Below, one piece after another: positions 31,745 to 48,056 of a stretch of 64,000 bases of DNA (position 1 is its first letter; each line of letters starts with the position of its first letter). The stretch covers positions 372,001 to 436,000 of the forward strand of contig JACDOE010000001.1 in assembly GCA_017656255.1 (NCBI GenBank). Reading direction: 5' to 3'. The notes under the pieces are model-generated. The model was not told the DNA's origin, ran no database searches, and worked only from the letters and a program-made list of their open reading frames with translations. This DNA is from Bacillaceae bacterium. GTDB lineage: Bacteria; Bacillota; Bacilli; JACDOE01. Position numbers and translations under genes: made by a program.

Positions 31745-31747
31745 ACA

Positions 31748-31781
31748 GAGAAAGGGCTTTTTAACAGCTCTTTCTTTTTTT
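31748..31781 (+). terminator. Terminator after the zinc-ribbon gene
   Basis: GAAAGGGCT (31750-31758) pairs with AGCTCTTTC (31766-31774), one G-U pair, then seven T. Confidence 0.85.
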
Positions 31782-31869
31782 GTATAATCAACCGTTAATC
31801 AACTTAAAATACAGACATAACCGGATTTGTCCCCGGCCATGTTGAAAATAAATAAGGGAAGGTGAAATC

Positions 31870-33213: not shown

Positions 33214-33236
33214 TTCACCCTCCCATATTTCATGTC

Positions 33237-33267
33237 AAAGCAGTGTCCCTTGTTGACACTGCTTTTC
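33237..33267 (+). terminator. Terminator after ypeB
   Basis: AAAGCAGTGTC (33237-33247) pairs with GACACTGCTTT (33255-33265) across CCTTGTT, then TTC; strong stem, short T-run. Confidence 0.75.
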
Positions 33268-33387
33268 TAATTGCGGAAAAATGACCGAATGATGACAGGA
33301 ATGTGAAACCGGAAAGTTATGTACGCCTTTATCGATTATACATGCTATAATAAAAAACACAGACAAATTTTGAGAGGGGGTTCGGGT

Positions 33388-34071
33388 ATGCTGCCGGAGG
33401 TAGGCCAGGAAATTTATCTGCAGGTCGATGATGGTGATCAGACCGACACCAGTTACAAATCTAAAGTAATAGATGTCAAAGATGACTATTTATCAATATA
33501 TTTGCCTGTATTGCAAAAAACAGGGAAAAGTAAAGTTCTCAGGGCAGGAAGCCGGGTAGGGGTGTCCCATTTTGGAAAAGATGGAGCCAGATATGAATAT
33601 TCTGTTATGATTCTGGAAAATGTGAATGATGAAATCCCTTATACACGAATTTCGATGCCGAAAAAAGAAGAAATTCAACGAAAACAACGAAGAAATTTTG
33701 TCCGGATTCCGGCCAGCGTCGAAGTCGCCCTGGAACTGATTGAACCCAATGACCGTAACATACATATTGTGACCAGAACGGTGGATATCAGCGGGGGAGG
33801 CATCGCGGTTCAGGTGCCGTCTACATATGATGTCAGACAGGACGATCAGTTTAATGTCTGGCTCGTTTTACCCTGCGGCAAGAATATCGTTCATGCCAAT
33901 TTCATCGGCAGGGTGACCCGTCTGATCGAAAAAGAAAATCAGGCCTTCAAGATTGCGCCGATTGAAATTATCAATATATCTCAGAAAGACCAGCAGCATA
34001 TTGTCCAGTTTTGCTTTCAATGTGAAGTGGAACAGCGAAAAAAACAGCAACGTATGTTTGACAGGAGATGA
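33388..34071 (+). CDS. ypfA: PilZ-domain c-di-GMP receptor (YpfA/YcgR-like)
   Basis: Flagellar-brake type protein; in B. subtilis YpfA (DgrA/MotI) binds c-di-GMP and stops the motor. The 227-residue protein has an N-terminal YcgR-like beta domain and a C-terminal PilZ domain with the c-di-GMP motifs RKQRRNFVRIPA (RxxxR) and DISGGG (D/NxSxxG). Start at 33388 (MLPEVGQEIYL) behind GAGAGGGGG; an in-frame codon 23 residues upstream lacks an RBS. Overlaps the next gene by four bases. Confidence 0.9.
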   Translation: MLPEVGQEIYLQVDDGDQTDTSYKSKVIDVKDDYLSIYLPVLQKTGKSKVLRAGSRVGVSHFGKDGARYEYSVMILENVNDEIPYTRISMPKKEEIQRKQRRNFVRIPASVEVALELIEPNDRNIHIVTRTVDISGGGIAVQVPSTYDVRQDDQFNVWLVLPCGKNIVHANFIGRVTRLIEKENQAFKIAPIEIINISQKDQQHIVQFCFQCEVEQRKKQQRMFDRR

Positions 34072-34280
34072 AGCGGAACTCCATGATGAGAAGCAGAAAA
34101 TACCCCGATTATGAAGCGCGATTTTGCCGGTTTTCAAACTCAATTGAAAAAGGATTATCAACCTTACTGGGTATCTTTTTGATATTGCTTATTTGTTCAC
34201 AAATTTTTTTATCCATTGATGACCACAATATGTTGAAGAATCAAACGGAAAAGCTGGAGGGTTCCGTTGCAACATTTTAA
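34068..34280 (+). CDS. ypfB: YpfB-like small membrane protein
   Basis: A 70-residue protein with a basic N-terminus, one membrane segment (about 34-50) and a short tail. It follows ypfA with an ATGA overlap, as ypfB does in B. subtilis (DUF5359-type). A start at 34083 is also possible. Function unknown; synteny is the main support for its reality. Confidence 0.7.
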   Translation: MKRNSMMRSRKYPDYEARFCRFSNSIEKGLSTLLGIFLILLICSQIFLSIDDHNMLKNQTEKLEGSVATF

Positions 34281-34393
34281 AGGGTGTGTTACTATTTAAG
34301 TAATTAAATAACTGAACATAAGTTGTCTGTCGTAGAGTGGGATATGTCGTAGTCGTCGTGGAAGTGGTGAATCGAATACGATAAGCGTTGTGG

Positions 34394-34417
34394 AAGCAGG
34401 CATCCCCTGCTTTTTTT
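34394..34417 (+). terminator. Terminator-like hairpin 33 bp before cmk
   Basis: AAGCAGG (34394-34400), CATCC loop, CCTGCTT (34406-34412) with T-run to 34417. It is 114 bp after ypfB but only 33 bp before the cmk start codon, leaving no room for a full promoter in between, so it may act as an attenuator for cmk. Confidence 0.75.
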
Positions 34418-34450
34418 ATGTCCTCTAGACCAACATCAGGTGGGATGGAT

Positions 34451-35119
34451 ATGATTATAGCCATAGATGGGCCGGCCGGAGCCGGGAAAAGCACCGTTGC
34501 AAAAAAAGTCGCTGAAAAACTGGATTTTCTTTACATAGATACAGGTGCCATGTATCGAGCCGTCACCTGGCTGGTATTAACGAATAAATTATCGTTAAAG
34601 GATTCAATCGACTGGCATCAATTGATTGCTGAGCATCCGATCGAACTGCGACCAGACGTTGACGGATATCGTGTGTTTGTCGGCAACCAGGATGTGACAG
34701 AGGATATTCGCACTCCGGAAGTCACTTCCCTGGTCCCGCAAATCGCCGGAATTCCTGAGGTGCGACGCGAACTGGTACAACTTCAGAGAAGGATGGCGGA
34801 GCATCACGATGTGGTGATGGATGGCAGAGATATCGGAACACACGTTTTTCCGCAGGCCGAACTCAAAATCTTTTTAACGGCATCTATTGAAGAAAGAGCC
34901 AGAAGAAGATATCACGATTTATTGGAGAAAGGATACCATCCGCAAATTGATGAGTTGCGTGATGAGATCGCCCTGAGAGACAAACAGGATCAGGAAAGGG
35001 ACATCGCCCCTTTAAAAAAAGACGATCAGGCCGAATTAATTGATACAACAGGCCTGTCCATTCAGGAGGTAGTGGATCGGATTATTTCCATTTTTCGCAA
35101 GAAGGTGAGGACTTCCTGA
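34451..35119 (+). CDS. cmk: Cytidylate kinase
   Basis: Phosphorylates CMP and dCMP. The 222-residue protein begins MIIAIDGPAGAGKSTVAKKV with the P-loop at about 8-15 and contains the family's DTGAMYRAVTW, DGRDIGTHVFP and ERARRRYHDL motifs (lid arginines). The start at 34451 has AGGTGGG at good spacing; the ATG two codons upstream abuts the ribosome site. The stop overlaps the plsC start by one base, so cmk and plsC are coupled, as in B. subtilis. Confidence 0.96.
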   Translation: MIIAIDGPAGAGKSTVAKKVAEKLDFLYIDTGAMYRAVTWLVLTNKLSLKDSIDWHQLIAEHPIELRPDVDGYRVFVGNQDVTEDIRTPEVTSLVPQIAGIPEVRRELVQLQRRMAEHHDVVMDGRDIGTHVFPQAELKIFLTASIEERARRRYHDLLEKGYHPQIDELRDEIALRDKQDQERDIAPLKKDDQAELIDTTGLSIQEVVDRIISIFRKKVRTS

Positions 35120-35712
35120 TGTATCATTTTTTTCGAGCTGTTTTTTATCATTTATTTCGTATCATCTTTCGACTGGATGTGGTCGGTGCTTCCCGCGTCC
35201 CGAAAAAGGGGTCTGTCGTGTTATGTGCCAATCACATCAGCAACCTGGATCCCATCTTGCTGGGAATCGGAGTTCCTCATCGCCAGATTCGGTTTATGGC
35301 GAAAGAGGAATTGTTCAAAGTCCCTGTTGTGTCATACTTCGTCCGAAATTTTGGTGCCTTTCCCGTTAAAAGGGGGATGAATGACCGCAGGGCTCTCAAA
35401 ACAGCACTGGAGGTATTGAAACAGGGACATGTACTGGGGATTTTTCCTGAAGGAACCCGGTCCAAAACGGGTGAACTGAAAAAAGGGCTACCCGGCGCTG
35501 CATTATTTGCCCTGAGAACGGATGCTCTTGTGATCCCGGTGGCCATCATCGGCCCGTACCGTCTATTTGGCCGATTAAAAATCGTGTATGGCGAGCCGTT
35601 GGACTTATCCGAATATAAAAATCAGGAAAAATCGGGAAGTCAGACTGTCAGGGAAGCGACTGAACGCATCATGGAATCCATACAGCAGTTGATCGAACAG
35701 CACCGTACTTGA
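35119..35712 (+). CDS. plsC: 1-acyl-sn-glycerol-3-phosphate acyltransferase
   Basis: Makes phosphatidic acid from lysophosphatidic acid at the membrane. The 197-residue protein has the acyltransferase motif NHISNLDP (His39, Asp44), FPVKRG (motif II) and FPEGTRSK (motif III, near 111) and a later VIPVAI. Starts by TGATG overlap with cmk. The window also holds plsY, so two of the three phosphatidic-acid synthesis genes are here. About 200 bp of AT-rich DNA follows before the S1 gene. Confidence 0.95.
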   Translation: MYHFFRAVFYHLFRIIFRLDVVGASRVPKKGSVVLCANHISNLDPILLGIGVPHRQIRFMAKEELFKVPVVSYFVRNFGAFPVKRGMNDRRALKTALEVLKQGHVLGIFPEGTRSKTGELKKGLPGAALFALRTDALVIPVAIIGPYRLFGRLKIVYGEPLDLSEYKNQEKSGSQTVREATERIMESIQQLIEQHRT

Positions 35713-35919
35713 CGGTGATGCTTTCAGAATGCAATGAGGGTCTTTTTTTGCATACAGATTGGATTCAATAGGGTATAACTAAGTGTGATAAATTTGGAAT
35801 CTTTTTCTCAATCGTTATCAAAGGGATTCATTGATTTTTCAATGATACCTTGAAAATAAAAATTAAAAAGCATATCACGTTTAAAGTGAAATGGTTGTGT
35901 ATTCAAGGAGGTTTAGTCA

Positions 35920-37086
35920 ATGGCAGAAGAAATTAAAAATGAAAATGAAATGACTGAGATGGAGAATGTGGATGTGGGAGATGTTGTCAGGGGCAAGGTA
36001 ACCAAAGTAGAGGAAAAACAGGCCCTGGTCGACGTTGGTTACAAGCTGGACGGCATCCTGCCGATCAGTGAAGTATCAAGCCTTCATATTGAAAAAGTAG
36101 GAGATGTCCTTCAGGAAGGGGACGAAATCGACGTACAGGTCATCCGTTTCAACGACGACAAAGATGAAATGATTGTCTCCAAAAAAGCAGTGGACCGGGA
36201 AAAAGCCTGGGGTGAACTGGAAAAGAAAATGGAAACCGGCGAAGTTTTTGAAGCTGAAGTAGCGGAAGTGGTTAAAGGCGGTCTAGTCGTTGATGTCGGT
36301 GTTCGTGGCTTTATCCCCGCTTCTATGGTGGAAAATTATTATGTCGAAGATTTTTCAGACTATAAAGGAAAAACACTGCGCTTAAAAGTTGTGGAAATGG
36401 ACAAAGAAAAAAATAAAGTCATTCTTTCCCAGAAAGCCGTTCTGGATGAAGAAAACGAAAAGAAAAAAGAGGAAGTTCTTGAAAACCTTGAAGAAGGCCA
36501 GGTTCTTGAAGGAACGGTTCAGCGTATCACTGACTTTGGTGCATTTGTCGACCTGGGTGGCATCGATGGTCTGGTTCACATCTCGGAACTTGCCTGGGAT
36601 CATGTTGAGAAGGTTTCCGATGTGGTACAGGAAGGCGATCAGGTGAAGGTTAAAGTACTCGGTGTGGATAAAGAAAAAGAACGAATCAGCCTGAGTATCA
36701 AACAAACCCAGCCGGGTCCCTGGGAACAGGCTGGAGAAAAGCTAAAACCGGGAGATGTCGTAACAGGAACCGTCAAACGTCTGGTCAATTTTGGAGCATT
36801 CGTGGAAGTATTGCCCGGTGTTGAGGGACTGGTGCATATTTCTCAGATCTCCAATCGTCATATCGGGACACCTTCTGAAGTTCTCGAAGAAGGTCAGGAA
36901 GTACAGGCCAAAGTTCTCGATGTCAATGTGGCAGAAAGAAGAATCAGCTTGAGCATTCGCGAACTTGAAGAACAGAAAGAACAGGAAGAAACGCGCAAGG
37001 TACAGGAAGAGCTGGAGCAGGATAATGCAGGCATGGGTGTCACCATCGGTGATCTGTTCGGTGACCTGAAGGACAAATTAAAATAA
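35920..37086 (+). CDS. ypfD: S1 RNA-binding protein (30S ribosomal protein S1 homologue, YpfD)
   Basis: RNA-binding protein of 388 residues with four S1 (OB-fold) domains at about 18-88, 104-173, 190-258 and 275-345; the last two have the classic GTVxRxxxFGAFVxL pattern ([25 protein letters not shown]). E. coli S1 has six domains, while Firmicute versions with four are normal and not essential for bulk initiation. Glu/Lys-rich C-terminus. ATG behind AAGGAGG. fni follows within 20 bp. Confidence 0.93.
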
Positions 37087-37102
37087 ACAGGTGTCGATGT
37101 AT

Positions 37103-38152
37103 ATGTCCAGAATATCCCGTAAAAAAGAGCATGTTGACTATGCTTTAAAAACAGGACAAAGCGGTCAAACCGGTCTGGACGACATTCAATTCGTACATCA
37201 ATGTGTGCCTGAATCATCACTGTCAGCGTGTGATCTGACAACATCCGTCGGCGGACTTAGCTTAAGTTCGCCGTTTTTTATTAACGCCATGACCGGGGGA
37301 ACCAATGACACCATGGGAATCAATGATCAATTAAGTGTAGCCGCCAGGGAATCCGGTCTTGCCATGGCTGTCGGGTCGCAGATGTCGGCTATTCAACACC
37401 CGGAATACCGCCGGACTTACAGTGTTGTTCGCAAAAATAATCCCGATGGTATTATCATTGCCAATCTTGGAGCTGAAGCGTCCCTGCAGGATGCATGGAC
37501 CGCGATTGATATGGTTGGGGCAGATGCCCTTCAAATTCACCTGAATGTTATGCAGGAATTGATTATGCCGGAAGGAGACCGTGACTTTCGGGGAGCACTG
37601 GAACGGATCGCCGATATTGCCGAAAACGTAGATATTCCGGTAATAGTCAAAGAGGTCGGATTCGGCATTTCACGAGAATCATTCCTTAAAATTCTTGAGA
37701 CAGGTGTTGCAGCGGTAGACGTCGGGGGTTCAGGAGGAACCAATTTTGCGTTGATTGAGAATTTGAGAAGAAGCGAAGAACCGCTCGACATGTTTCGGGA
37801 TTGGGGACTCAATACGGCCCAGTCTTTACTGGAGGTCCATTCCGTCAATTCAGAGGTATCCGTGATTGCCTCCGGTGGCATTCGCAACGGACTGGATGCG
37901 GCCAGGGCGATTGCACTTGGCGCCGATGCAGCAGGTATGGCCGGTTTCTTTTTAAAAACCGTTACTGAATCTGGTGTAGACGGTGTTCTGGATGCTATCC
38001 GTCAACTTCATCGACAATTTAAAATCGTGATGACGGCACTCGGGGTGGAGAATCTGACGCAATTACAGAAAGTGCCTCTTGTAATCAGCGGTGCTACTTA
38101 CCACTGGGCCAGGTTGAGAGGTATCGACTGCCGAATATATGCCACCCGATAA
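37103..38152 (+). CDS. fni: Isopentenyl-diphosphate delta-isomerase, type 2
   Basis: FMN- and NADPH-dependent enzyme interconverting isopentenyl and dimethylallyl diphosphate. The protein (349 residues from this start) has the type 2 features TGLDDIQFVH, NAMTGG (FMN site), QMSAIQHPEY, and VKEVGFGIS followed by DVGGSGGTNFA. The ATG at 37103 gives an N-terminus like B. subtilis Fni (MxRxxRKxxH) and has AGGTG eight bases before it; GTG at 37091 and ATG at 37097 are in frame too. It supplies precursors for the hepS/hepT prenyl chain encoded later. Confidence 0.93.
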   Translation: MSRISRKKEHVDYALKTGQSGQTGLDDIQFVHQCVPESSLSACDLTTSVGGLSLSSPFFINAMTGGTNDTMGINDQLSVAARESGLAMAVGSQMSAIQHPEYRRTYSVVRKNNPDGIIIANLGAEASLQDAWTAIDMVGADALQIHLNVMQELIMPEGDRDFRGALERIADIAENVDIPVIVKEVGFGISRESFLKILETGVAAVDVGGSGGTNFALIENLRRSEEPLDMFRDWGLNTAQSLLEVHSVNSEVSVIASGGIRNGLDAARAIALGADAAGMAGFFLKTVTESGVDGVLDAIRQLHRQFKIVMTALGVENLTQLQKVPLVISGATYHWARLRGIDCRIYATR

Positions 38153-38178
38153 AACCCGGTTAGATACCGGGTTTTTTT
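38153..38178 (+). terminator. Terminator after fni
   Basis: AACCCGGT (38153-38160) pairs with ACCGGGTT (38166-38173), 5-nt loop, T-run of seven. Overlaps the fni stop. Confidence 0.85.
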
Positions 38179-38249
38179 AATGTTTTTTGCGAGCCGTTTC
38201 TGAACATACTTTTAATGAGTGGTTCGTTCTGCCAGCAGGAGGTGCGACG

Positions 38250-38879
38250 ATGAATCCCGGGTATCTGAGTTTCCTGTCATACTGGTTTGTTTTTATATTT
38301 ATCTGGATCGGGCTGCTTTCCCCTTTTTTAAACCAGATTCAAATTAAAAAACGGTATTTTTATTTGATTTTCCTCGTTTCCTGGATAGGAACGTTTTTTA
38401 ATATCCCGATTTACGAGAAACTGCAAATCAATGTGGGCGGATATGCGGTTCCATTTTTGCTGGCCATGTGGATCTGGACTCGGGAAAATGAACAGCATCG
38501 GGCTCATTTGTTCAGTGTCGGGGCCTTAATTGGTGCATCAGTCCTGCTGGTTAGAGGCATGATTCGCCTTGATCCGGTAATTATGATTGTTGATGAGATG
38601 TATATGGTGGCTATTTTAACGGGGTTTCTTTCTCTGATCGCCGTTCGCCGGTATATTCATCATGTTTTCGTCATCACGATGGGACTCTTCGTGGAACAAA
38701 TCTTATACACCTGGTATTTTTGGGACAAACTAAACGTTGTCGTACTGGGGAATGCGGCGTTTCGTGATACCTGGTGGATGTCTTTATGGCTGGCGGGTAC
38801 GGGACAACTGCTTTTGTCCGGAATCAAAGTTTCCAATCCGATCAGGAAAATAAGATTGTCCAACAAAAAAACAGAGTAA
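38250..38879 (+). CDS. yphA: YphA-like membrane protein
   Basis: Integral membrane protein of 209 residues with about six to seven hydrophobic segments. No catalytic motif seen. The start at 38250 (MNPGYLSFL) follows GGAGGTG at five bases. It sits between fni and the YIEGIA gene, the place of yphA in B. subtilis. Function unknown. Confidence 0.7.
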   Translation: MNPGYLSFLSYWFVFIFIWIGLLSPFLNQIQIKKRYFYLIFLVSWIGTFFNIPIYEKLQINVGGYAVPFLLAMWIWTRENEQHRAHLFSVGALIGASVLLVRGMIRLDPVIMIVDEMYMVAILTGFLSLIAVRRYIHHVFVITMGLFVEQILYTWYFWDKLNVVVLGNAAFRDTWWMSLWLAGTGQLLLSGIKVSNPIRKIRLSNKKTE

Positions 38880-38906
38880 CATGACGACGTAATCAGGTGA
38901 TAAGAG

Positions 38907-39785
38907 ATGGAAAACTACACCCTGGCCATTATCATCGGGGTTTTAGTCGGTTTTGTTTCTAGATTATTGATGTTGCGAACAGATTATCGGCAATATCCCA
39001 CTTATCCGCACGGACGTGTTATCCATATTTCCCTGGGGCTGATTGCAGCGGGGCTGGGGGCCATCGCGGTACCTGCCCTGTTTGAGCAGGATTACACAGC
39101 GATCACATTTCTGGCACTGGCCGCTCAGCAATTTCGTGATGTTCGGAATATGGAACGTAACAGTCTTCAACAACTGGATGAAATGGAACTGGTTCCACGA
39201 GGCTCAACCTATATTGAGGGCATTGCCATGGTTTTTGAGGGACGTAACTACCTGGTTATCTTTTCCGCCTTTTTGACTTCCCTCAGCACGGTTTTCTGGG
39301 GGTGGCAGGGGGGCGTGATCATCGGGATCCTGACCCTGGTTGTTGATGCCTCTTTCATGTCCGGCAAACTGGTTAAAGATGTGGCTGAAGTACGTCAGGC
39401 TGACGTCCGCATTGACGGCCCCGATCTGTATGTCGATGATATCTATATCATGAATGTCGGTCTGGAGGATACGCGGGAAAAGATCAAAAAAGTCGGTCTG
39501 GGATTCGTCCTGACCCCCCATAATGAAAACAGTATTGTCACAATCTCAAATATCGGCCAGCGTCAGGCGATTTTACATGATGTGTCCACGATTCTCGGGG
39601 TGTACCGGGATACGGGTGAGCCCTCGCTTGTTCCGCTCAGTAAAAGAAGTCTGGATGATGGGAGATTGGGAGTGTTTTTGATCCCGCAAAACCGAAATCC
39701 GAGGAAAGCGATGGAGATCATCCGGCATGTTCCAGTGCTTGAAGGAGCCATACGTATGCCCTCTGAATCTGAAGCCAATGAATGA
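38907..39785 (+). CDS. YIEGIA-family membrane protein
   Basis: A 292-residue protein carrying the eponymous YIEGIAMVFEGRNYL stretch (about 98-112). N-terminal half: membrane segments near 5-20, 37-55 and 112-150. C-terminal half (about 165-290): a soluble domain with repeated short beta-like elements. It is followed by a 65-residue protein annotated in databases as its capping subunit, and by two DUF3189 genes. This block corresponds in position to yphB of B. subtilis. Known to occur in spore formers; role not established from sequence. Confidence 0.8.
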   Translation: MENYTLAIIIGVLVGFVSRLLMLRTDYRQYPTYPHGRVIHISLGLIAAGLGAIAVPALFEQDYTAITFLALAAQQFRDVRNMERNSLQQLDEMELVPRGSTYIEGIAMVFEGRNYLVIFSAFLTSLSTVFWGWQGGVIIGILTLVVDASFMSGKLVKDVAEVRQADVRIDGPDLYVDDIYIMNVGLEDTREKIKKVGLGFVLTPHNENSIVTISNIGQRQAILHDVSTILGVYRDTGEPSLVPLSKRSLDDGRLGVFLIPQNRNPRKAMEIIRHVPVLEGAIRMPSESEANE

Positions 39786-39798
39786 GTTGAGGTGAAAT

Positions 39799-39996
39799 AT
39801 GATGGGAACCTCTCTGGAAAAATATATCCTCGCTGTTATTACCATGGATCCGCAGAAAGTGAGTGGAGGCGCGCCCATTTTTTATGCTGAAAATGAAGAT
39901 GAAATGCAGAAAACTGCTTTTACCCTTGAAAAAATACTGGACGGGATGGCCCATGATGTCAAAAACGGAACGATGATTATTGTGAAGCATTTTTAG
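39799..39996 (+). CDS. Capping subunit-like small protein paired with YIEGIA
   Basis: A 65-residue soluble protein (TSLEKYILAVIT, APIFYAENEDEMQKTAF, NGTMIIVKHF) found next to YIEGIA-family genes and named in databases as a capping complex subunit. ATG 14 bp after the YIEGIA stop with GAGGTG upstream. Two consecutive ATG codons make the exact start uncertain by one residue. Likely binds the YIEGIA protein; inference from gene pairing. Confidence 0.7.
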   Translation: MMGTSLEKYILAVITMDPQKVSGGAPIFYAENEDEMQKTAFTLEKILDGMAHDVKNGTMIIVKHF

Positions 39997-39998
39997 CG

Positions 39999-40262
39999 AT
40001 GAAAATTTTGTTTTACAGTGAAGATGATGGTCGCAAAGCGCTGAAGCTCGCAAAACAACAATGTGTAGAACCGGCCGAAGGTTTATCATTGACAGATTAC
40101 CAGACAGGACAAATTGTCTATATCGGCCGGAATCTGGAGGGTCACGCCCTGTACATATGCGGTGTCTCTCAATCGAAACCGGTCTGTCAACAGGCCTGGA
40201 TCCATGCGCTGTCTGAAATCGGATGCACCATTTCCAGCTGGATTTTTTATGAAGTCACTTAA
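39999..40262 (+). CDS. Short DUF3189-like protein
   Basis: An 87-residue protein starting two bases after the capping gene. Its LSLTDYQTGQIVYIGRNLEG stretch aligns with LSLSDFDTGQEMFIGSLFFKG of the next gene, and the rest follows the same pattern (YICGVSQSKPV/YTMGMGSEPDI; SSWIFYEV/RQYLFFSA). It lacks the C-terminal 70 residues of its neighbour, so it is a shorter paralogue or a half-size relative of DUF3189. No frameshift seen. Function unknown. Confidence 0.65.
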   Translation: MKILFYSEDDGRKALKLAKQQCVEPAEGLSLTDYQTGQIVYIGRNLEGHALYICGVSQSKPVCQQAWIHALSEIGCTISSWIFYEVT

Positions 40263-40276
40263 AACGGTGAGGAATC

Positions 40277-40777
40277 ATGAATGTTATTTATTATTGTTAC
40301 GGAAGTGCTCATTCTTCCATTATTGCAGCCCATATTCACCTGGGGCACTTACCTTCCGACCGGGTTCCCTCAACAACAGAAATTCTTTCCCTGTCAGACT
40401 TTGATACGGGACAGGAGATGTTTATTGGAAGCCTGTTTTTTAAAGGCATTGATGAAAAAGGCAGACGCATCTATACAATGGGAATGGGAAGTGAACCGGA
40501 CATAGTAAAAGAAACCTTTCTGTCCATGATTGAGGTTGCAGGCGGGGACCGTCGTCAATATTTATTTTTTTCGGCCCTGCCGCATATCAACCATGTCGCC
40601 AAATTCGGCGGAACACTGTCACGAAGATATGGTATCGTATGGCCCGGACGTCAAATCGCTGTTTGGGGGATCAGGCAGAGTTATCGTGAACTGGTGCAAT
40701 TTGTAAGGCATTGCCGTGAGATTTTGGACAAGTCTCCTCATGCATCTTTTAAAAAAAGGGAGAATGATGTAAAATGA
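40277..40777 (+). CDS. DUF3189 family protein
   Basis: A 166-residue soluble protein opening with YYCYGSAHSSIIAAHIHLG, which resembles a phosphate-binding loop, although it lacks a Walker lysine. DUF3189 proteins occur mainly in spore-forming Firmicutes and have no known function. Preceded by AAAACGGTGAGG. It forms a tight cluster with the YIEGIA gene, its capping gene and the shorter paralogue, ahead of der. Confidence 0.75.
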   Translation: MNVIYYCYGSAHSSIIAAHIHLGHLPSDRVPSTTEILSLSDFDTGQEMFIGSLFFKGIDEKGRRIYTMGMGSEPDIVKETFLSMIEVAGGDRRQYLFFSALPHINHVAKFGGTLSRRYGIVWPGRQIAVWGIRQSYRELVQFVRHCREILDKSPHASFKKRENDVK

Positions 40778-40816
40778 AGCAGCAGAGCATACGGTTCTTA
40801 GAAAGGTAGGTTCAAA

Positions 40817-42130
40817 ATGGCAAAACCAGTAGTAGCGATTGTCGGCAGACCCAATGTCGGAAAATCAACGATATTCAACCGTATTATAGGTGAAAGGGTC
40901 GCCATTGTAGAAGACATTCCAGGCATTACACGGGATCGAATTTACGGTGAAGGGGACTGGCTGGACCATTCCTTTTCCATTATAGATACCGGCGGTATTG
41001 AATTTGACCAGAAAGAAGATATGCTGGCGCAGGTGAAGCATCAGGCTGAATTAGCCATTGATGAAGCCAGTGTGATTATATTTGTAGTGGATGGACAGGC
41101 CGGCATAACCGGATCGGATCAGGAAGTAGCCAAACTGCTTTTCCGTTCCAAAAAACCGGTTATTCTTGCTGTTAACAAAATTGACAATCCGCAGCGCCTT
41201 CATGATGTTTATGAATTTTACTCCCTCGGTTTTGGTGAACCGGTGGCAATCTCAGGCGCTCACGGGATCGGCATCGGTGATTTGCTGGATCGTGTGATTG
41301 AACATTTCCCGGAACAAGAGGAAGAGGATTATGATGATGATGTGATTCGGGTAGCCATCATCGGCAGACCCAATGTCGGCAAGTCATCCCTGTTCAATGC
41401 CATCATCGGGGAAGAAAGGGTCATTGTCAGTGATATGGCCGGAACCACACGGGATGCTGTGGATACGGAATTTGAATCAGATGGTCAGAAATTTGTTTTA
41501 ATTGATACGGCCGGTATGCGAAAACGCGGTAAAGTTTATGAAACGACGGAAAAATACAGTGTATTAAGAGCACTTCGTGCCATCGAACGGTCCGATGTGG
41601 TGCTTGTGGTGATGGATGGCAAACAGGGGATTATCGAACAGGACAAAAAGATTGCCGGATATGCCCATGAAGCGGGCAGAGCGGTGATCATTGTGGTTAA
41701 CAAATGGGACATCGTCGAAAAAGACGATAAAACCATGCATCGTTTTGAAAAAGAAATCCGCCAGGATTTACCTTTTGTTGATTATGCACCGGTCATTTTT
41801 GTTTCAGCGAAAACAGGGCAACGTGTCCGGCATATCCTTCCCAAAGTCCAGGAAGTGGCCGATCAGCATGCGATGCGTGTTCCGACCAGTGTGTTGAATG
41901 AGGTTGTATCGGATGCTGTTGTGGTGACCCCGCCACCATCGGATAAAGGACGTCGCCTCCGGGTCAATTATATGACCCAGGTCGGGGTAAAACCGCCGAC
42001 TTTTGTTACCTTTGTCAACGATCCGGAGCTGATGCACTTTTCCTATTTAAGATATCTGGAAAACAAGTTGCGGGAAGCATTTGTCTTCGAGGGAACACCG
42101 TTAAGAATCTTTGTCCGTAAAAAAACATAA
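40817..42130 (+). CDS. der: GTPase Der (EngA)
   Basis: Essential double GTPase for assembly of the 50S subunit. The 437-residue protein has two complete G domains: GRPNVGKST (about 10-18), DIPGITRD-type G2, DTGGIEF and NKID in the first; GRPNVGKSS (about 183-191), AGTTRD, DTAGMR and NKWD in the second; and a C-terminal KH-like domain (about 350-437). ATG behind AGAAAGGTAGG. plsY and gpsA follow closely. Same place as yphC in B. subtilis. Confidence 0.97.
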
Positions 42131-42154
42131 TAGAGAGGAGATTCCAAAAGATTC

Positions 42155-42778
42155 ATGAGTGTATTATCATGGGTAATGGCTTATCTTTTAGGGTCTATCA
42201 GTTTCAGCTATCTGATTGCAAAAAAGATTGCCAGAATTGATATTCGAGAACACGGCAGCGGGAATGCCGGAGCAACCAACACACTGCGTGTTCTTGGCAA
42301 GGGACCGGCTATCCTCGTGTTGGCTCTCGATATTTTCAAAGGGATGGCCGCAGTGGGAGTCGGATACTGGTTTTCCGGCGGCGATACGGAGGTAACCCTT
42401 GTTGCCGGAGCACTTGCTATAATAGGACATAACTGGCCGATTTACTTTCGTTTTAAAGGAGGGAAGGGGATTGCCACTACCATCGGTGTGATGGCAACCG
42501 TGGCCTTTTTTCCTGCTCTTTACGCCGGAATCATTGCGATTTTATCGATTGTATTGACACGGTATGTTTCTCTGGGTTCCCTCATTTTTGTCAGCGGAAC
42601 CCCAATTATGATGTTGTGGACAGGAGAATCATTTTCCCATATCATTTTTGCCTTATTCGTTGCGATTCTGGGAATCACACGACATTACAAGAATCTGATC
42701 AATCTTATTAAAGGTAAGGAACGTAAGATAGGGGAACCCTCTCCGCCTGCGCATTCTCAGCAGCAAAGGAGTGAATAA
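42155..42778 (+). CDS. plsY: Acyl-phosphate:glycerol-3-phosphate acyltransferase
   Basis: Membrane enzyme starting phospholipid synthesis by acylating glycerol-3-phosphate with acyl phosphate. The 207-residue protein has five hydrophobic segments and the three PlsY motifs: GSGNAGATNTLR (motif 1), HNWPIYFRFKGGKGIATTIG (motif 2) and a GITRHYKNLINLIKGKE region (motif 3). Preceded by GAGAGGAG. It directly adjoins gpsA, whose product makes its substrate, which is a sensible pairing. Confidence 0.95.
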   Translation: MSVLSWVMAYLLGSISFSYLIAKKIARIDIREHGSGNAGATNTLRVLGKGPAILVLALDIFKGMAAVGVGYWFSGGDTEVTLVAGALAIIGHNWPIYFRFKGGKGIATTIGVMATVAFFPALYAGIIAILSIVLTRYVSLGSLIFVSGTPIMMLWTGESFSHIIFALFVAILGITRHYKNLINLIKGKERKIGEPSPPAHSQQQRSE

Positions 42779-42779
42779 C

Positions 42780-43826
42780 GTGCAAAAAGTAGGTGTCATA
42801 GGCTCGGGGAGCTGGGGAACAGCGTTATCAATCGTACTGGCTGACAACAATCGAGAAGTACATATCTGGTCACGCAAACATGAGACGGCTGACGAGATCA
42901 ACAATCAACATACCAACCGCAGGTATCTTCCGGATATCACTCTTCCTGAAAGTATTTATGGTTTTACGTCTATCGAAAACGTAGTCCGGGATAAAAACGT
43001 GATTCTGCTGGCTGTACCTTCACATGCGATGAGAAGTACCGTTCGACATATTGTGCCGTATTTAAAAAAAGAGGCACTGATCATTCATGCGGCAAAGGGG
43101 CTGGAAATTGATTCTTTAAAACGGATGAGCGAGGTTCTTGAAGAAGAACTGCCGACATCCTTTCATGAACGGATTGTGGTACTCTCCGGTCCCAGTCATG
43201 CTGAAGAAGTAAGCCGACGATCACCGACGACTGTTGTGGTGGCCTCGAGGAGTCTGGAATCTGCGGAACAGGCCCAGGATGCATTTATCAATTCTAATTT
43301 CAGGGTCTATACCAATCCGGATGTAATTGGTGTTGAAATCGGAGGTGCCTTGAAAAATATTATTGCACTCGGATCCGGTCTTTCAGACGGACTGGGTTAT
43401 GGGGACAATGCAAAAGCGGCCCTGATTACCCGCGGGCTGGCGGAAATCGGGCGTCTCGGCGTTCATCTCGGCGCCAATCCGTTAACATTTTCCGGATTGT
43501 CGGGAGTTGGCGACCTTGTCGTCACCTGTACCAGTCAGCACAGTCGTAACTGGCGTGCCGGCCAGATGCTGGGACAGGGAAAACAATTGAATGAAGTGCT
43601 GGATACAATGGGGATGGTGGTTGAAGGCATTCGAACCACCAAGGCGGCTTATAAATTGTCGCAGCAGGAAAAGGTAGAAATGCCGATCACAAGGGAATTA
43701 TTTCAGGTTTTATTTGAGAATAAATCTCCGAAACTGGCAGTTGAAGACTTGATGTGCCGGGGTAAAACCCATGAAATGGAAGAGATCGCAAACAAGAATT
43801 TATTCGATAAAACAGGCGAGGGATGA
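42780..43826 (+). CDS. gpsA: NAD(P)-dependent glycerol-3-phosphate dehydrogenase
   Basis: Reduces dihydroxyacetone phosphate to glycerol-3-phosphate for phospholipids. The 348-residue protein has the dinucleotide motif GVIGSGSWGTAL (about 5-16) and the substrate site GGALKNIIALGSGL with the catalytic Lys near 190. The GTG at 42780 has AAAGGAG eight bases before it; the in-frame GTG at 42771 is too close to the ribosome site. Its end forms a hairpin with the end of the convergent gene. Confidence 0.96.
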   Translation: MQKVGVIGSGSWGTALSIVLADNNREVHIWSRKHETADEINNQHTNRRYLPDITLPESIYGFTSIENVVRDKNVILLAVPSHAMRSTVRHIVPYLKKEALIIHAAKGLEIDSLKRMSEVLEEELPTSFHERIVVLSGPSHAEEVSRRSPTTVVVASRSLESAEQAQDAFINSNFRVYTNPDVIGVEIGGALKNIIALGSGLSDGLGYGDNAKAALITRGLAEIGRLGVHLGANPLTFSGLSGVGDLVVTCTSQHSRNWRAGQMLGQGKQLNEVLDTMGMVVEGIRTTKAAYKLSQQEKVEMPITRELFQVLFENKSPKLAVEDLMCRGKTHEMEEIANKNLFDKTGEG

Positions 43827-43841
43827 CACAGGTCATCCCTC
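43818..43841. terminator. Hairpin shared by the 3' ends of gpsA and the convergent gene
   Basis: GAGGGATGAC (43818-43827), ACAG loop, GTCATCCCTC (43832-43841). It includes the last codons of both genes, which end seven bases apart. No U-run on either side, so termination would be weak. Confidence 0.5.
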
Positions 43842-44246
43842 ACTTGCCGTTCGAACATCGCCCCGACTTGGCCGATTTTGTGTGGATTCACTGGTGAGTA
43901 TGGACTGGATAATGGGAGATTGAAGAATTTCCACAATCTGTTTAAAATCGACGTGATTCAATTTTTTCAGGATTTCGTTTCCGGACAGGGAGCGATTACC
44001 CCGGTTACCACTTAATTGTTCGAGAAAATCAATGACAGTGATCATGGAATCCATGGCATCATCCATCTGTTTAATAAATGTATTGGCCTGTTTGATGCCG
44101 TCACGTAATCTCAGAACCTTATAACGAACATCATTCGGGTTGTGTTGCCGTTTCAAGTAAGCCACATTCCCTTTTTGTTTAATCCGGTTCTTCTTAACCG
44201 TCGGGTAACGTGCATAAGGATTTTTCCACTGCCTTTGCTTATTCAT
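43833..44246 (-). CDS. Unknown basic protein
   Basis: I do not recognise this 137-residue soluble protein. The N-terminus is rich in Lys, Arg, Tyr and Asn (MNKQRQWKNPYARYP), like some spore-coat and small sporulation proteins. The middle is a predicted helix (KQANTFIKQMDDAMDSMITVIDFLEQLSG), then a Ser/Asn-rich turn and a second helical stretch. It lies on the opposite strand among sporulation-linked genes (yphE, yphF, spoIVA), so a sporulation role is a guess. AGGAGGG precedes the start. Confidence 0.6.
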   Translation of the reverse strand: MNKQRQWKNPYARYPTVKKNRIKQKGNVAYLKRQHNPNDVRYKVLRLRDGIKQANTFIKQMDDAMDSMITVIDFLEQLSGNRGNRSLSGNEILKKLNHVDFKQIVEILQSPIIQSILTSESTQNRPSRGDVRTASEG

Positions 44247-44379
44247 ATCACCTGAATCCCTCCTGACATCTTACACCCATATAGTATGCGGGCGTTTGTT
44301 CGGGTGTTAAAGCACATAGGGGACGTCGGCGTTTGTATGGTATAATAATTTAAAAAATGTCCGAAGAAGGTTGGAAAAA

Positions 44380-44553
44380 ATGGTCAAAATGTTATATGCA
44401 TTCATTGCAATCCTGCTCATGTTTATTGCAAACTTTTCAATTACCTATGCTCGAAAATTAAAAAAAGGTGTGATTCGCTCCCTTATATCAATATTTGCCT
44501 TTTTACTGTTAATTCCATCTGCGGTGTTGATTTTAGTCGTCATTTTAGGATAA
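44380..44553 (+). CDS. yphE: DUF2768 small membrane protein (YphE-like)
   Basis: A 57-residue protein with two membrane segments separated by a short basic loop (YARKLKKGVIRS). The start at 44380 has GAAGAAGG nine bases before it; a TTG three codons upstream also lies in frame. Position after gpsA and size match B. subtilis yphE. Function unknown. Confidence 0.7.
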   Translation: MVKMLYAFIAILLMFIANFSITYARKLKKGVIRSLISIFAFLLLIPSAVLILVVILG

Positions 44554-44565
44554 GGAGTTTTGATC

Positions 44566-44913
44566 TTGGCAAAATTGACTTTTTTACCTGTGCAAAAAAA
44601 AGTGCAGATTCGCGAAGGCATGACCATCCTGGAGGGAGCCAAACGGGGAAGAGTCGGCCTCAGGCATAAGTGCGGGGGAAAAGGCTCCTGCACCACATGT
44701 AAAGTGATGATCGGTGCCGATCAACCTGTTACAAAACCGAGACCTCTTGAAATGAAAGTACTGGGTGAAAGCCTGATCCGTAAAGGGTGGCGATTATCCT
44801 GCCAGACCCGGATTTTCGGGAATACGACGGTTGAAATTCCGGATGACCCGGCCAGGTCTTACGTTCAATCCAGGCTGAATCTAACAGATCGGGAGAGAGA
44901 AAGCGATGTTTAA
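44566..44913 (+). CDS. Plant-type 2Fe-2S ferredoxin
   Basis: Electron carrier of 115 residues. The four cluster ligands are Cys36, Cys42, Cys45 (CGGKGSCTTC) and Cys79 (LSCQTR), the standard CxxxxxCxxC...C set. The TTG at 44566 is placed eight bases after AAGGAG. It starts 12 bp after yphE and overlaps yphF by eight bases, so it is part of the yphE-yphF operon, an unusual addition compared with B. subtilis. Electron partner unknown. Confidence 0.85.
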   Translation: MAKLTFLPVQKKVQIREGMTILEGAKRGRVGLRHKCGGKGSCTTCKVMIGADQPVTKPRPLEMKVLGESLIRKGWRLSCQTRIFGNTTVEIPDDPARSYVQSRLNLTDRERESDV

Positions 44914-45625
44914 CCCAAAAAAGCTAACGTTAGGTTTGCTTGTGATCCTTTTATTGATGTTGAGCGGATGTATGTATCCGGAAGAACGGTATGCGGAAAA
45001 CCAGATACCCCCGGACACGTTTGTTCGCGATGTACAGAGTGCAATCGATCGTTATTATCAGGAAAACAAATTACTGCCGATAAAAACAAAGCCGGCAGAT
45101 ACGCCGGTTTTTGAGAAGTATGTGATTGAATTTAACCGGCTGGTCCCCCGCTATCTTGCTTCCGTACCACCCAATGTATTCGAAAAAGGCGGACCCTATT
45201 ATTACGTCCTGATTAACATTGAAGAGAAACCAACGGTCAAACTGCTCGATCTTCGTGTTACAAGTAAAGTGGCTGACGTCCAGCAACGGGTGGATGTCTT
45301 TCTGGCGGCACAGGGGCATTTACCCATCAAGGATTTGATTGGCCCGGGATATTATGCCATTGACTACGAAGCATTAAAGTCTGACCCCGTTTATGTAAGA
45401 AGTGTTTACTCCGGCGCACAACTTCCTCTGATCATGAATGCATCAGGCAAGGTCGGAGTTGATTACAGAATCGATCTGGCAGGCCGGCTGGAGAAAACAG
45501 ACTTGCCATTAACGCCGGGTGAGGATATCCGGTATCTGCTCACCCGTGATTCTATGTTCGTCCCTGTTAAATCTTTCCCTTACACCATTGACCAGGGTGA
45601 ACCGGTATTTATGATAAAAAAATAG
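44906..45625 (+). CDS. yphF: YphF-like lipoprotein
   Basis: A 239-residue lipoprotein with the signal ending in the lipobox LSGC (Cys21 or so, MLSGCMYPEERYAEN). The mature domain is soluble, beta-rich and Asp/Tyr-rich without a known motif. B. subtilis yphF occupies the same place immediately before spoIVA. RBS GGGAGAGAG overlaps the end of the ferredoxin gene. Function unknown; exported and anchored on the outside. Confidence 0.75.
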   Translation: MFNPKKLTLGLLVILLLMLSGCMYPEERYAENQIPPDTFVRDVQSAIDRYYQENKLLPIKTKPADTPVFEKYVIEFNRLVPRYLASVPPNVFEKGGPYYYVLINIEEKPTVKLLDLRVTSKVADVQQRVDVFLAAQGHLPIKDLIGPGYYAIDYEALKSDPVYVRSVYSGAQLPLIMNASGKVGVDYRIDLAGRLEKTDLPLTPGEDIRYLLTRDSMFVPVKSFPYTIDQGEPVFMIKK

Positions 45626-45705
45626 AATAAATCTCCTCCCCGTCTCATACTTTTTACAAAAGGGTATGGAGAATCGTACAAAATCAATTGAAGAAAGACA
45701 TACCT

Positions 45706-45740
45706 GAGCAATCGGTGAATACCGTTGCTCTATATTTTTG
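45706..45740 (+). terminator. Terminator after yphF
   Basis: GAGCAATCGGT (45706-45716) pairs with ACCGTTGCTC (45721-45730), one bulged T, GAAT loop, then TATATTTTTG. Confidence 0.7.
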
Positions 45741-45755
45741 ATTTTTAGCTGAGCG

Positions 45756-45783
45756 TCATAAAACTACGATTCTCTCATATATT
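45756..45783 (+). promoter_or_regulatory. SigE-like promoter of spoIVA
   Basis: TCATAAA (45756-45762) and CATATATT (45776-45783), with 15 bases between ATA and CATA, resemble the mother-cell SigE consensus (ATA... CATACANT). Placed 82 bp before the spoIVA start, where a SigE promoter is expected from B. subtilis. Confidence 0.45.
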
Positions 45784-45864
45784 TATAGTGTCCTACAGAC
45801 TGTACGAGGATCCATTTTACCATCCATACCTCATGAAGGAGATGGATAAAGGAGGAGGAATAAA

Positions 45865-47343
45865 GTGGAACGCGTCGATATTTTTCATGACATTGCCGAG
45901 CGGACCGGCGGGGATATTTATCTGGGAGTGGTCGGGCCTGTCAGAACCGGGAAATCCACTTTTATCAAAAAATTTATGGAACAGGTGGTATTACCCAACA
46001 TAGAAAATGAATCTGATCGGATCCGAACGACTGATGAACTTCCACAGAGTGCGGCTGGCCGTACTATTATGACGACAGAGCCCAAATTCGTTCCCAATCA
46101 GGCGGTTGAAATTAACGTGGATGAAGGGCTGAATGTCAACGTTCGGCTGGTGGATTGTGTCGGATACACGGTAGAAGGCGCACAGGGATACGAGGACGAA
46201 AATGGACCTCGTATGATCAGCACGCCCTGGTATGATGAGCCGATTCCGTTTGAAGAAGCCGCGGAAGTCGGGACTCGAAAAGTAATCCAGGAACACTCCA
46301 CACTGGGTGTTGTGATTACAACAGACGGATCGATCACCGAAATTCCCCGTGATAACTACCTGGAAGCCGAAAGACGGGTCGTTGAGGAACTCAAGGAAGT
46401 GGGTAAACCATTTATCATGCTGGTTAACTCAACCCGTCCCCGTAGCCAGGAAACCCAGTTGCTGGTAGAAGAACTTCAGGAAGAATATGATATCCCGGTG
46501 CTGGCCATGAGTATTGCGGATATGGACGAACGGGATATGTTAACCGTGATGAAAGAAGTTCTGTTTGAATTCCCGGTTCATGAAGTGAATGTCAACCTGC
46601 CGAGCTGGGTCATGGTTCTCGATGATGATCACTGGCTGCGCCAGAGTTATGAGGAGGCCGTTCGTGAAACTGTCAAGGACATCCGCAGATTACGGGATGT
46701 GGATCGGGTTGTCGGTTATTTTGTAGATTATGAAAATATCGAACGGGCTGCTCTGGCTGATATGGATATGGGTCAGGGGATCGCGGAAATCGATCTGTAT
46801 GCGCCCGAAGATCTTTACGATCGCATTCTGATGGAAATCGTCGGGGTCGAAATTAAAGGGAAAGACCATCTCCTTCAACTTATGAAAGAGTTCAGCCATG
46901 CCAAAAAAGAATACGATCGCGTCGCCGAAGCGCTGACCATGGTAAAACAGACGGGTTACGGCATCGCACGACCCAGCCTGGAAGATATGACACTCGAAGA
47001 GCCTGAAGTAATTCGCCAGGGGTCACGTTTCGGGGTTCGTCTGAAAGCAAAAGCCCCCGCTATTCATATGATTCAGGTCAATGTAGAATCTGAATTTGCG
47101 CCGATCATCGGTACTGAGCAGCAGAGCCAGGAATTGATCAATTATCTGATGACGGATTATGATAAGGACCCGCTCAGTATCTGGGAAACTGAAATTTTCG
47201 GGCGTTCTCTAAGTAACATCGTCAACGATGGCATTTCAGCCAAACTGTCAATGATGCCGGACAATGCCCGGTTTAAATTGCAGGAAACCCTTGAAAGAAT
47301 CGTCAATGAAGGATCCGGTGGACTCATCGCCATCATCTTGTAG
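45865..47343 (+). CDS. spoIVA: Stage IV sporulation protein A, spore-coat ATPase
   Basis: Cytoskeletal ATPase that polymerises on the outer forespore membrane as the base of the coat. The 492-residue protein has a P-loop GPVRTGKSTFI with Lys30, a middle domain and a C-terminal region that ends GGLIAIIL, all typical of SpoIVA. GTG start at 45865 behind GGAGGAGGAATAAA. Its gene order with yphF, hbs and folE is conserved in Bacillus. Near-identical in length to the B. subtilis protein. Confidence 0.97.
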   Translation: MERVDIFHDIAERTGGDIYLGVVGPVRTGKSTFIKKFMEQVVLPNIENESDRIRTTDELPQSAAGRTIMTTEPKFVPNQAVEINVDEGLNVNVRLVDCVGYTVEGAQGYEDENGPRMISTPWYDEPIPFEEAAEVGTRKVIQEHSTLGVVITTDGSITEIPRDNYLEAERRVVEELKEVGKPFIMLVNSTRPRSQETQLLVEELQEEYDIPVLAMSIADMDERDMLTVMKEVLFEFPVHEVNVNLPSWVMVLDDDHWLRQSYEEAVRETVKDIRRLRDVDRVVGYFVDYENIERAALADMDMGQGIAEIDLYAPEDLYDRILMEIVGVEIKGKDHLLQLMKEFSHAKKEYDRVAEALTMVKQTGYGIARPSLEDMTLEEPEVIRQGSRFGVRLKAKAPAIHMIQVNVESEFAPIIGTEQQSQELINYLMTDYDKDPLSIWETEIFGRSLSNIVNDGISAKLSMMPDNARFKLQETLERIVNEGSGGLIAIIL

Positions 47344-47361
47344 CGGCCAACTTCCATCACG

Positions 47362-47396
47362 GCTTCTATCGAACAGATAGAAGCTTTTTATTTTTT
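47362..47396 (+). terminator. Terminator after spoIVA
   Basis: GCTTCTATC (47362-47370), GAACA loop, GATAGAAGC (47376-47384), then TTTTTATTTTTT. Confidence 0.88.
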
Positions 47397-47720
47397 AAAT
47401 TTTTTTTAGAAAATTGAAGGAAAAGGATGATTAATGTCGAATATTGCGTATATGAAATTTATGGAATTGGTGCGTTGAACCTTTGATATAAGTGGATTTT
47501 CACGAATGGGACTTTTGTCATGGTTAAGAAAGATCAGCATAGGCCATTCGGCTCAATTTTTGACAGATTCAGCAAAAACGCTTGACCTGCCTGATTTTTC
47601 TATATTACTATTACTTTGACTTCATTGTAGAAATTAGAGGAAATAAGTATAAAAATGTCCAACATGGTTAACAAAGTATAGTAAGTATAGATTGAAGTTC
47701 CATTGAGAGGAGGTGAGACA
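47397..47720. other. Intergenic region before hbs
   Basis: About 320 bp, AT-rich, with no gene. Candidate -35 boxes TTGACC (near 47582) and TTGACT (near 47617) lack a clear partner at 17 bp, so I do not assign a promoter, although hbs is normally driven by strong ones. The ribosome site AGGAGGTGAGAC at 47707-47718 is very strong. Confidence 0.5.
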
Positions 47721-47993
47721 ATGAATAAGACTGAACTCATCGCTCAAGTGGCTGAAACTGCAGGACTTACTAAGAAGGATGCATCCAAAGCTGTAGATGC
47801 AGTATTTAATGCGATTGCTGACTCTCTGAAAAAAGGAGACAAAGTTCAGTTAATCGGATTTGGAAACTTTGAAGTACGTGAACGTGCCGCTCGCAAAGGG
47901 CGTAACCCGCAGACCGGAGCTGAAATTCAGATTCCGGCGAGCAAGGTACCGGCCTTTAAACCGGGGAAAGCATTGAAAGAAGGCATCAAATAG
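47721..47993 (+). CDS. hbs: DNA-binding protein HU
   Basis: Histone-like nucleoid protein of 90 residues, with [12 protein letters not shown] and the beta-arm [27 protein letters not shown] that embraces DNA. The start at 47721 is preceded by AGGAGGTGAGAC. In B. subtilis hbs also lies between spoIVA and folE (mtrA). A good stand-alone terminator follows. Expected to be highly expressed, in line with the strong RBS. Confidence 0.97.
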
Positions 47994-48017
47994 ATTTTGG
48001 CATCTACGGGCAGATTG

Positions 48018-48056
48018 GAAGAGTTGCTAAATCAGCAACTCTTCTTTTGCTTTTTT
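48018..48056 (+). terminator. Terminator after hbs
   Basis: GAAGAGTTGCT (48018-48028), AAATC loop, AGCAACTCTTC (48034-48044), then TTTTGCTTTTTT. Confidence 0.88.

What the first reader, a model, noticed from the sequence alone, without database searches (positions are those of the whole stretch)
38907..40777. YIEGIA protein, its small partner and two DUF3189 paralogues as a compact module
Four genes with gaps of 2-14 bp sit between yphA and der. The shorter 87-residue protein aligns with the first two-thirds of the next 166-residue DUF3189 protein (both have a LSL-D-TGQ stretch), so they are paralogues. None has a known function, and all are spore-former families. A membrane protein with a soluble domain, a tiny partner and two related soluble proteins look like subunits of one complex.
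Basis: partly seen in the sequence, partly recalled or inferred. Interest (0 to 1): 0.55.

Follow-up and report, generated by a model that had tools for sequence, protein, structure and literature searches.

The report
Forespore gene pairs YIEGIA-cap and DUF3189
Four small genes of a spore-forming bacterium turn out to be two separate pairs in one spore-development gene cluster: a membrane protein with its constant tiny partner, and a pair of look-alike proteins in which nearly always only one keeps the apparent working site.

Summary
The four genes are there, with gaps of 13, 2 and 14 bp. They are two units rather than one. (1) YIEGIA plus its 65-residue partner (already Pfam PF21835, 'Capping complex subunit for YIEGIA'): both in 127 of 128 YIEGIA genomes (the exception's contig ends), and still together in second or relocated copies. 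(2) Two DUF3189 paralogues, which occur without YIEGIA in 73 of 178 DUF3189 genomes and are missing from 23 of 128 YIEGIA genomes. Both are nearly confined to genomes with SpoIIIAE. In most relatives the order is yphA-spoIIP-YIEGIA-cap-DUF3189-DUF3189-(PDZ/radical-SAM/DUF512)-der, with a sigma-F-like promoter before yphA (32 of 116 loci; shuffles at most 6), not before YIEGIA. New here: in 92 of 103 two-copy loci exactly one DUF3189 keeps a CxGxxHSS-D-GGFxSR-GRP signature; either copy can be the keeper, and 11 loci have both as one gene. The window's 87-residue gene is an extreme, shortened pseudo-copy. Best reading: a forespore membrane complex (YIEGIA-cap) beside an asymmetric active/inactive DUF3189 pair.

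The parts
38250..38879 (+). yphA-like membrane protein, first gene of the presumed operon; likely start ATG 38250 after AGGAGG 38237-38242 (ORF finder gives TTG 38187)
   Evidence: Pfam YphA PF24124 4.6e-9; start read from the sequence; a terminator-like hairpin with a T run at 38153-38178 closes the preceding gene (read)
38907..39785 (+). YIEGIA membrane protein, 292 aa; YIEGIA motif residues 102-107
   Evidence: PF14045 9.7e-126; AF2 pLDDT 91.0, pTM 0.87; 21 invariant columns in 61 homologues
39799..39996 (+). YIEGIA_cap, 65 aa constant small partner
   Evidence: PF21835 6.7e-32; next to YIEGIA in 127 of 128 first-copy loci, 5 of 5 second-copy loci and 80 of 80 named Bacilli loci
39999..40262 (+). 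DUF3189 copy 1, 87 aa, degenerate: signature loop and C-terminal half lost
   Evidence: 21.2 bits to DUF3189; E 1e-8 to the 97-aa first copy of Caldalkalibacillus mannanilyticus, L193; signature absent
40277..40777 (+). DUF3189 copy 2, 166 aa, canonical: YCYGSAHSS...AAHIH, GGTLSR, GR
   Evidence: PF11385 2.5e-45; site letters present

Best explanation
The genes are the middle of a forespore (sigma-F) operon and form two separable units. Unit 1: YIEGIA, a membrane protein with an alpha/beta domain, works as an obligate complex with the 65-residue cap protein in the forespore (later spore inner) membrane. Unit 2: the two DUF3189 proteins form an asymmetric pair in the forespore cytosol: one subunit carries a ligand or catalytic site built from a phosphate-loop-like CxGxxHSS turn, an Asp, GGFxSR and GRP; the other has lost that whole site but is kept, as a structural or regulatory pseudo-subunit. 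In this genome the pseudo-subunit is reduced to 87 residues. Shown: gene order, co-occurrence, promoter enrichment in relatives, loss of the site in one copy, natural fusions. Inferred: physical complexes, cytosolic location, that the site is catalytic, and any ligand.
For: YIEGIA and cap co-occur in 127 of 128 YIEGIA genomes, none has cap alone; in G290, the exception, YIEGIA lies at the end of its contig; cap is adjacent in 5 of 5 second copies and 80 of 80 named Bacilli loci; among 10 loci without the der/yphA context no other neighbour family is shared by all. DUF3189: of 103 two-copy loci, canonical/degenerate +- 61, -+ 31, ++ 9, -- 2; one of the two -- (L113) has the signature upstream of the start chosen by my ORF finder. 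Degenerate copies (95) also lose residues not used to define them: Asp45 100% to 30%, G114 100% to 21%, S117 100% to 19%, R127 95% to 33%, while G59 stays 97%, A20 98%. Eleven loci have both in one ORF; the fused L172 protein is modelled with pLDDT 88.3, pTM 0.87. Sigma-F-like site before yphA: 32 of 116 vs shuffles mean 2.0, max 6; DUF3189-only loci 9 of 27 vs mean 0.8, max 3. Literature passages: B. [quoted passage not shown] a YIEGIA protein is among uncharacterised spore inner-membrane proteins of B. cereus (PMC8624511); spoIIP is sigma-F controlled in C. difficile (PMC7924749).
Against: No physical contact was measured or predicted for YIEGIA-cap; the coevolution test was no better than permuted pairings. 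The +/- classes come from related genomes, so the Fisher value is not a phylogenetic test; the tree is weakly resolved (57 of 114 inner branches open, long branches meet). No structural relative stands out: no Foldseek match with E up to 1e-3 for either model. Nine of 103 loci keep two canonical copies, and single canonical copies are common (28 of 28 single-copy loci; 38 of 44), so a partner is not always needed. In five unlinked or odd copies (L275, L288, L290, L291, L293) Cys is replaced by Asp, which speaks against an essential Cys nucleophile. The window itself has no clear sigma-F site before yphA.
Confidence: 0.5

Rival explanations
1. All four products are subunits of one membrane-bound complex; lineages that lack one pair run a reduced version.
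For: Tight spacing; positive association of YIEGIA and DUF3189 within SpoIIIAE genomes (103/23/71/58, odds ratio 3.7); DUF3189 directly follows cap in 96 of 128 first-copy loci (33 with one ORF, 63 with two).
Against: 73 of 178 DUF3189 genomes have no YIEGIA and 23 of 128 YIEGIA genomes no DUF3189; in DUF3189-only genomes the genes sit right after spoIIP (32 of 38 loci), so the position is kept without YIEGIA; in some genomes the two lie on different contigs (G101 and G023: L080/L286, L047/L287).
Confidence: 0.15
2. The 87-residue gene is a decaying pseudogene without function; only the 166-residue DUF3189 matters.
For: Signature and C-terminal half lost, below the Pfam cut-off; start is 2 bp after the cap stop with no clear ribosome-binding site (read); many genomes live with one DUF3189.
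Against: Open frame with tight spacing; a similarly shortened first copy (97 aa) is kept in Caldalkalibacillus (L193; E 1e-8); degenerate partners are kept in most two-copy loci.
Confidence: 0.25
3. The genes merely sit in a conserved chromosomal block with housekeeping genes (der, plsY, gpsA) and are not functionally linked to each other.
For: der follows in 106 of 128 first-copy loci, and der, plsY and gpsA have general roles (recalled).
Against: YIEGIA and cap stay together when relocated or duplicated; both DUF3189 and YIEGIA track SpoIIIAE; sigma-F-like sites are enriched before yphA and score no higher before der or gpsA than before YIEGIA or cap.
Confidence: 0.1

Closest known systems
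B. subtilis YphB (YIEGIA, PF14045)
   Same: Same family; B. subtilis holds YIEGIA and cap over the cut-offs (controls); in a Bacillus atrophaeus locus (L243) YIEGIA-cap lies before der and gpsA; reported as sigma-F regulated (PMC12017682, passage).
   Different: B. subtilis has no DUF3189 over the cut-off (controls).
spoIIP-YIEGIA-DUF1614 neighbourhood of PMC5898192
   Same: They already note that YIEGIA (yphB), SpoIIP and the DUF1614 membrane family (pfam07758) lie together (passage); the window's yphA-like protein matches DUF1614 weakly.
   Different: The passage seen does not mention cap or DUF3189; in the window genome spoIIP lies elsewhere and DUF512 is not found.
Active/pseudo-enzyme heterodimers in general (recalled)
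   Same: Paralogous pair in which one member keeps the site and the other is kept without it.
   Different: Here either paralogue can be the one without the site, in different lineages (61 vs 31 loci), and the activity is unknown.
P-loop NTPases and Cys-phosphate-loop proteins (LMW phosphatase, PTS EIIB; motifs recalled)
   Same: Weak fold resemblance of DUF3189 to P-loop GTPases (best Z 5.5, rmsd 4.7 over 111 residues); signature turn after strand 1.
   Different: No Walker A Lys and no Cx5R; nothing with Foldseek E up to 1e-3.

Membership tests
YIEGIA (PF14045) | score over Pfam cut-off and the YIEGIA motif | tested here: met
   418.8 bits vs 27; YIEGIA at residues 102-107
YIEGIA_cap (PF21835) | score over Pfam cut-off, beside YIEGIA | tested here: met
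   109.4 bits vs 24.1; 13 bp after YIEGIA
YIEGIA_cap (PF21835) | physically caps YIEGIA (implied by the Pfam name) | not testable with these tools
   no structure of the pair could be predicted; no paper in the library holds the term PF21835; DCA uninformative
DUF3189 (PF11385), 166-aa protein | score over Pfam cut-off | tested here: met
   154.3 bits vs 23.2
DUF3189 (PF11385), 87-aa protein | score over Pfam cut-off | tested here: not met
   21.2 bits vs 23.2; homologous all the same
P-loop NTPase | Walker A GxxxxGK[ST] (recalled) | tested here: not met
   window loop is YCYGSAHSS, no Lys; canonical copies have His at that place in 99%
P-loop NTPase | fold | tested here: inconclusive
   Z at most 5.5
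Low-molecular-weight phosphatase | Cx5R loop (recalled) | tested here: not met
   Cys is followed at +6 by Ser (CYGSAHS)
MscS-like channel (YIEGIA) | fold | tested here: inconclusive
   whole-length rows Z about 5-5.7 with rmsd near 25-31; C-domain alone Z 5.2-5.5, rmsd about 3 over about 80 residues
sporulation (sigma-F forespore) gene | confined to spore formers | tested here: met
   SpoIIIAE present in 126 of 128 YIEGIA and 174 of 178 DUF3189 genomes, against 255 of 299 overall
sporulation (sigma-F forespore) gene | sigma-F promoter at the operon head | tested here: inconclusive
   enriched in relatives (32 of 116, shuffles at most 6); not seen in the window itself

The most novel reading that the evidence does not exclude
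DUF3189 is an undescribed forespore enzyme that arose by an old duplication into an obligate pair, after which the active site was lost several times independently from one or the other paralogue, with repeated gene fusion and, in this genome, erosion of the dead partner to 87 residues; it acts next to the SpoIIP and YIEGIA-cap machinery of the engulfment stage.
Probability: 0.35. Interest if true: 0.65.

Novelty: new variant of a known kind. Interest (0 to 1): 0.45.

Why it matters
DUF3189 occurs in 178 of 299 sampled genomes of the phylum, almost all with a sporulation marker, yet no paper in the searched library names it. The residues that separate canonical from degenerate copies give a concrete site to mutate, and the forespore operon and pseudo-partner suggest what to measure. 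The pair is also a natural series for studying how an active/inactive heterodimer evolves.

Tried and rejected
Sigma-factor sites directly before YIEGIA: no better than shuffles in the window and no enrichment over der or gpsA in relatives. PDB profile searches with both alignments: nothing. Foldseek and VIA: no clear relative for either model; viral library nothing. Pfam scans of all members at loose E-value: only chance-level extras (LCCL in 5 of 58; DUF7144 in 10 of 61, SpoVAB in 6 of 61). NCBIfam had no model at a meaningful score for any of the five proteins. Membrane topology of YIEGIA stayed ambiguous: residues 116-149 could cross once or twice, so I make no claim on which side the alpha/beta domain lies. 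Considered and dropped: DUF3189 as PTS EIIB-like or phosphatase (loop spacing resembles, key residues differ; motifs recalled). The name SeaA for YphB is recalled and found in no call.

Rows dropped before counts: dereplicated subsets were used for alignments A1 (61 of 133 YIEGIA), A3 (58 rows) and the tree (117 of 250 DUF3189 domains; L293 left out); the DUF3189 place list was cut by the tool, so only listed places were fetched; L173 was a 200-base filler and was not analysed. Starts were the first start codon of each ORF, so a few copies are cut at the N-terminus (L113, L283; corrected by hand). In one search the two-copy locus L193 is counted as single because its short first copy fell below the domain threshold. 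In one search the fused double genes count as one ORF.

Full report
What is in the window. Four ORFs, 38907-39785, 39799-39996, 39999-40262 and 40277-40777, all on +, with gaps of 13, 2 and 14 bp. Pfam names them YIEGIA (9.7e-126), YIEGIA_cap (PF21835, 6.7e-32), a sub-threshold DUF3189 (21.2 bits, cut-off 23.2) and DUF3189 (2.5e-45). The two DUF3189 proteins align at E = 6e-07. The yphA-like gene before them probably starts at ATG 38250 and follows a terminator-like hairpin (read), so an operon from yphA to the second DUF3189 is plausible; der follows at 40817.

Who has them. In one set of 299 genomes of the phylum, YIEGIA is in 128, DUF3189 in 178, cap in 127 and SpoIIIAE, used as a sporulation marker, in 255. 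YIEGIA and cap: 127 both, 1 YIEGIA only, 0 cap only; in the exception, G290, the contig ends just after YIEGIA. YIEGIA and DUF3189: 105 both, 23 YIEGIA only, 73 DUF3189 only, 98 neither; within SpoIIIAE genomes 103/23/71/58. Two YIEGIA genomes and four DUF3189 genomes lack a SpoIIIAE hit. These counts are not corrected for relatedness.

Gene order. Loci were fetched for all 128 YIEGIA genomes and 5 second copies. Of the 128 first-copy loci (the window included), cap is next in 127, spoIIP directly precedes YIEGIA in 110, DUF3189 follows cap in 96 (33 one ORF, 63 two), a PDZ/radical-SAM/DUF512 gene lies downstream in 96 and der in 106 (families named). All 5 second copies and all 80 named Bacilli loci have cap next to YIEGIA; only 4 of these 80 have DUF3189 genes (L174, L193, L207, L226). 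In loci of DUF3189-only genomes, spoIIP directly precedes DUF3189 in 32 of 38 and no YIEGIA or cap is present. The window's genome differs from the common arrangement: its spoIIP lies elsewhere and no DUF512 was found. PMC5898192 (passages only) had already reported YIEGIA, SpoIIP and the DUF1614 family in one neighbourhood.

When they are expressed. A sigma-F-like site (GYATA, 15-16, GGNNANANT; consensus recalled), 9 of 10 or better, lies within 150 bp before yphA in 32 of 116 YIEGIA loci against a dinucleotide-shuffle mean of 2.0 and maximum of 6, in 6 of 32 named Bacilli loci (0.8, max 3) and in 9 of 27 DUF3189-only loci (0.8, max 3); sigma-E and sigma-A patterns stay near their shuffles, sigma-G-like sites are also enriched (25 of 116, 19 of 32 and 5 of 27). 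Nothing similar precedes YIEGIA itself. In the window the yphA upstream region shows no clear site; one 9-of-10 match at 38703 lies inside yphA, and there are 5 such matches on the whole + strand. Passages in print agree on the forespore: B. subtilis YphB is sigma-F regulated and not essential (PMC12017682, citing Decatur and Losick 1996, which I did not see), a YIEGIA protein is listed in the B. cereus spore inner membrane (PMC8624511), and spoIIP is under sigma-F in C. difficile (PMC7924749).

The DUF3189 pair. In 103 loci with two domains, the canonical loop (C, G, H, S at the four defining columns) is present in the first only 61 times, the second only 31, both 9, neither 2. One of the two 'neither' cases (L113) has the loop upstream of the start I had chosen; the other (L293) has Asp in place of Cys in its first copy. 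Degenerate copies also lose residues far from the defining loop: Asp45 falls from 100% to 30%, G114 100% to 21%, S117 100% to 19%, R118 95% to 36%, R127 95% to 33%, whereas G53 (90%), G59 (97%) and A20 (98%) are kept (numbering of L037 copy 1). This is what loss of one functional site on a preserved scaffold looks like. Eleven loci hold both domains in one ORF, and the fused L172 protein is modelled as one confident unit (pLDDT 88.3, pTM 0.87). A tree of 117 domains without the loop columns needs 8 canonical/degenerate changes, but half of its inner branches are open and long branches meet, so the number of independent losses is uncertain. The window's 87-residue protein lacks both the loop and the C-terminal half; a 97-residue first copy in Caldalkalibacillus is its nearest match among those compared, and the Tumebacillus first copies are longer (149 and 150 residues) yet already lack the loop, which suggests stepwise erosion.

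Structures. YIEGIA: pLDDT 91.0, four long helices (2-23, 34-59, 64-91, 100-149) and an alpha/beta domain from about 154. The 21 invariant residues are mostly in the N-terminal half and include D26, R28, H40, R80, E83, R98, E111, R113 and N114, which is more than a passive anchor needs and hints at a binding or catalytic site (inference). No library match is convincing. DUF3189: an alpha/beta fold with the signature in the turn after strand 1; the weak matches are P-loop GTPases and kinases (Z up to 5.5), but the Walker Lys is absent.

Verdict. There are two pairs, not one quartet: YIEGIA-cap, which is inseparable and already noted in Pfam, and the DUF3189 pair, whose one-live-one-dead pattern appears to be undescribed (no paper in the searched library holds DUF3189 or PF11385). 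What either pair does biochemically remains open; enzyme or ligand-binding activity of DUF3189 and membrane complex formation of YIEGIA-cap are inferences.

Noticed in passing
L170, L262, L265, L292: A third, YIEGIA-unlinked DUF3189 copy lies next to an opposite-strand gene that matches the Der GTPase profile (102.6 bits in L170); the four loci come from genomes G080, G111, G211 and G232 of one family.
   Followed up: no
L275, L288, L290, L291, L293: DUF3189 copies in which the signature Cys is replaced by Asp while Gly and His of the loop stay.
   Followed up: partly
L034-L165, gene before der: A PDZ/radical-SAM/DUF512 protein sits between DUF3189 and der in most loci; a protein with these domains is listed as essential in C. 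difficile Tn-seq (PMC12548448, passage).
   Followed up: partly
window 38250: The yphA-like gene most likely starts at ATG 38250 behind AGGAGG, not at TTG 38187.
   Followed up: partly
named Bacilli loci, upstream of yphA: Sigma-G-like sites are enriched before yphA (19 of 32 vs shuffle mean 2.0), which could mean a forespore switch from sigma-F to sigma-G.
   Followed up: no
window 30900-48678: By eye from the translations (no family search), the block also holds prsW-like, ypeB-like, cmk, plsC, S1, fni, plsY, gpsA, a ferredoxin, a lipoprotein, spoIVA (45865-47343), HU and folE.
   Followed up: no
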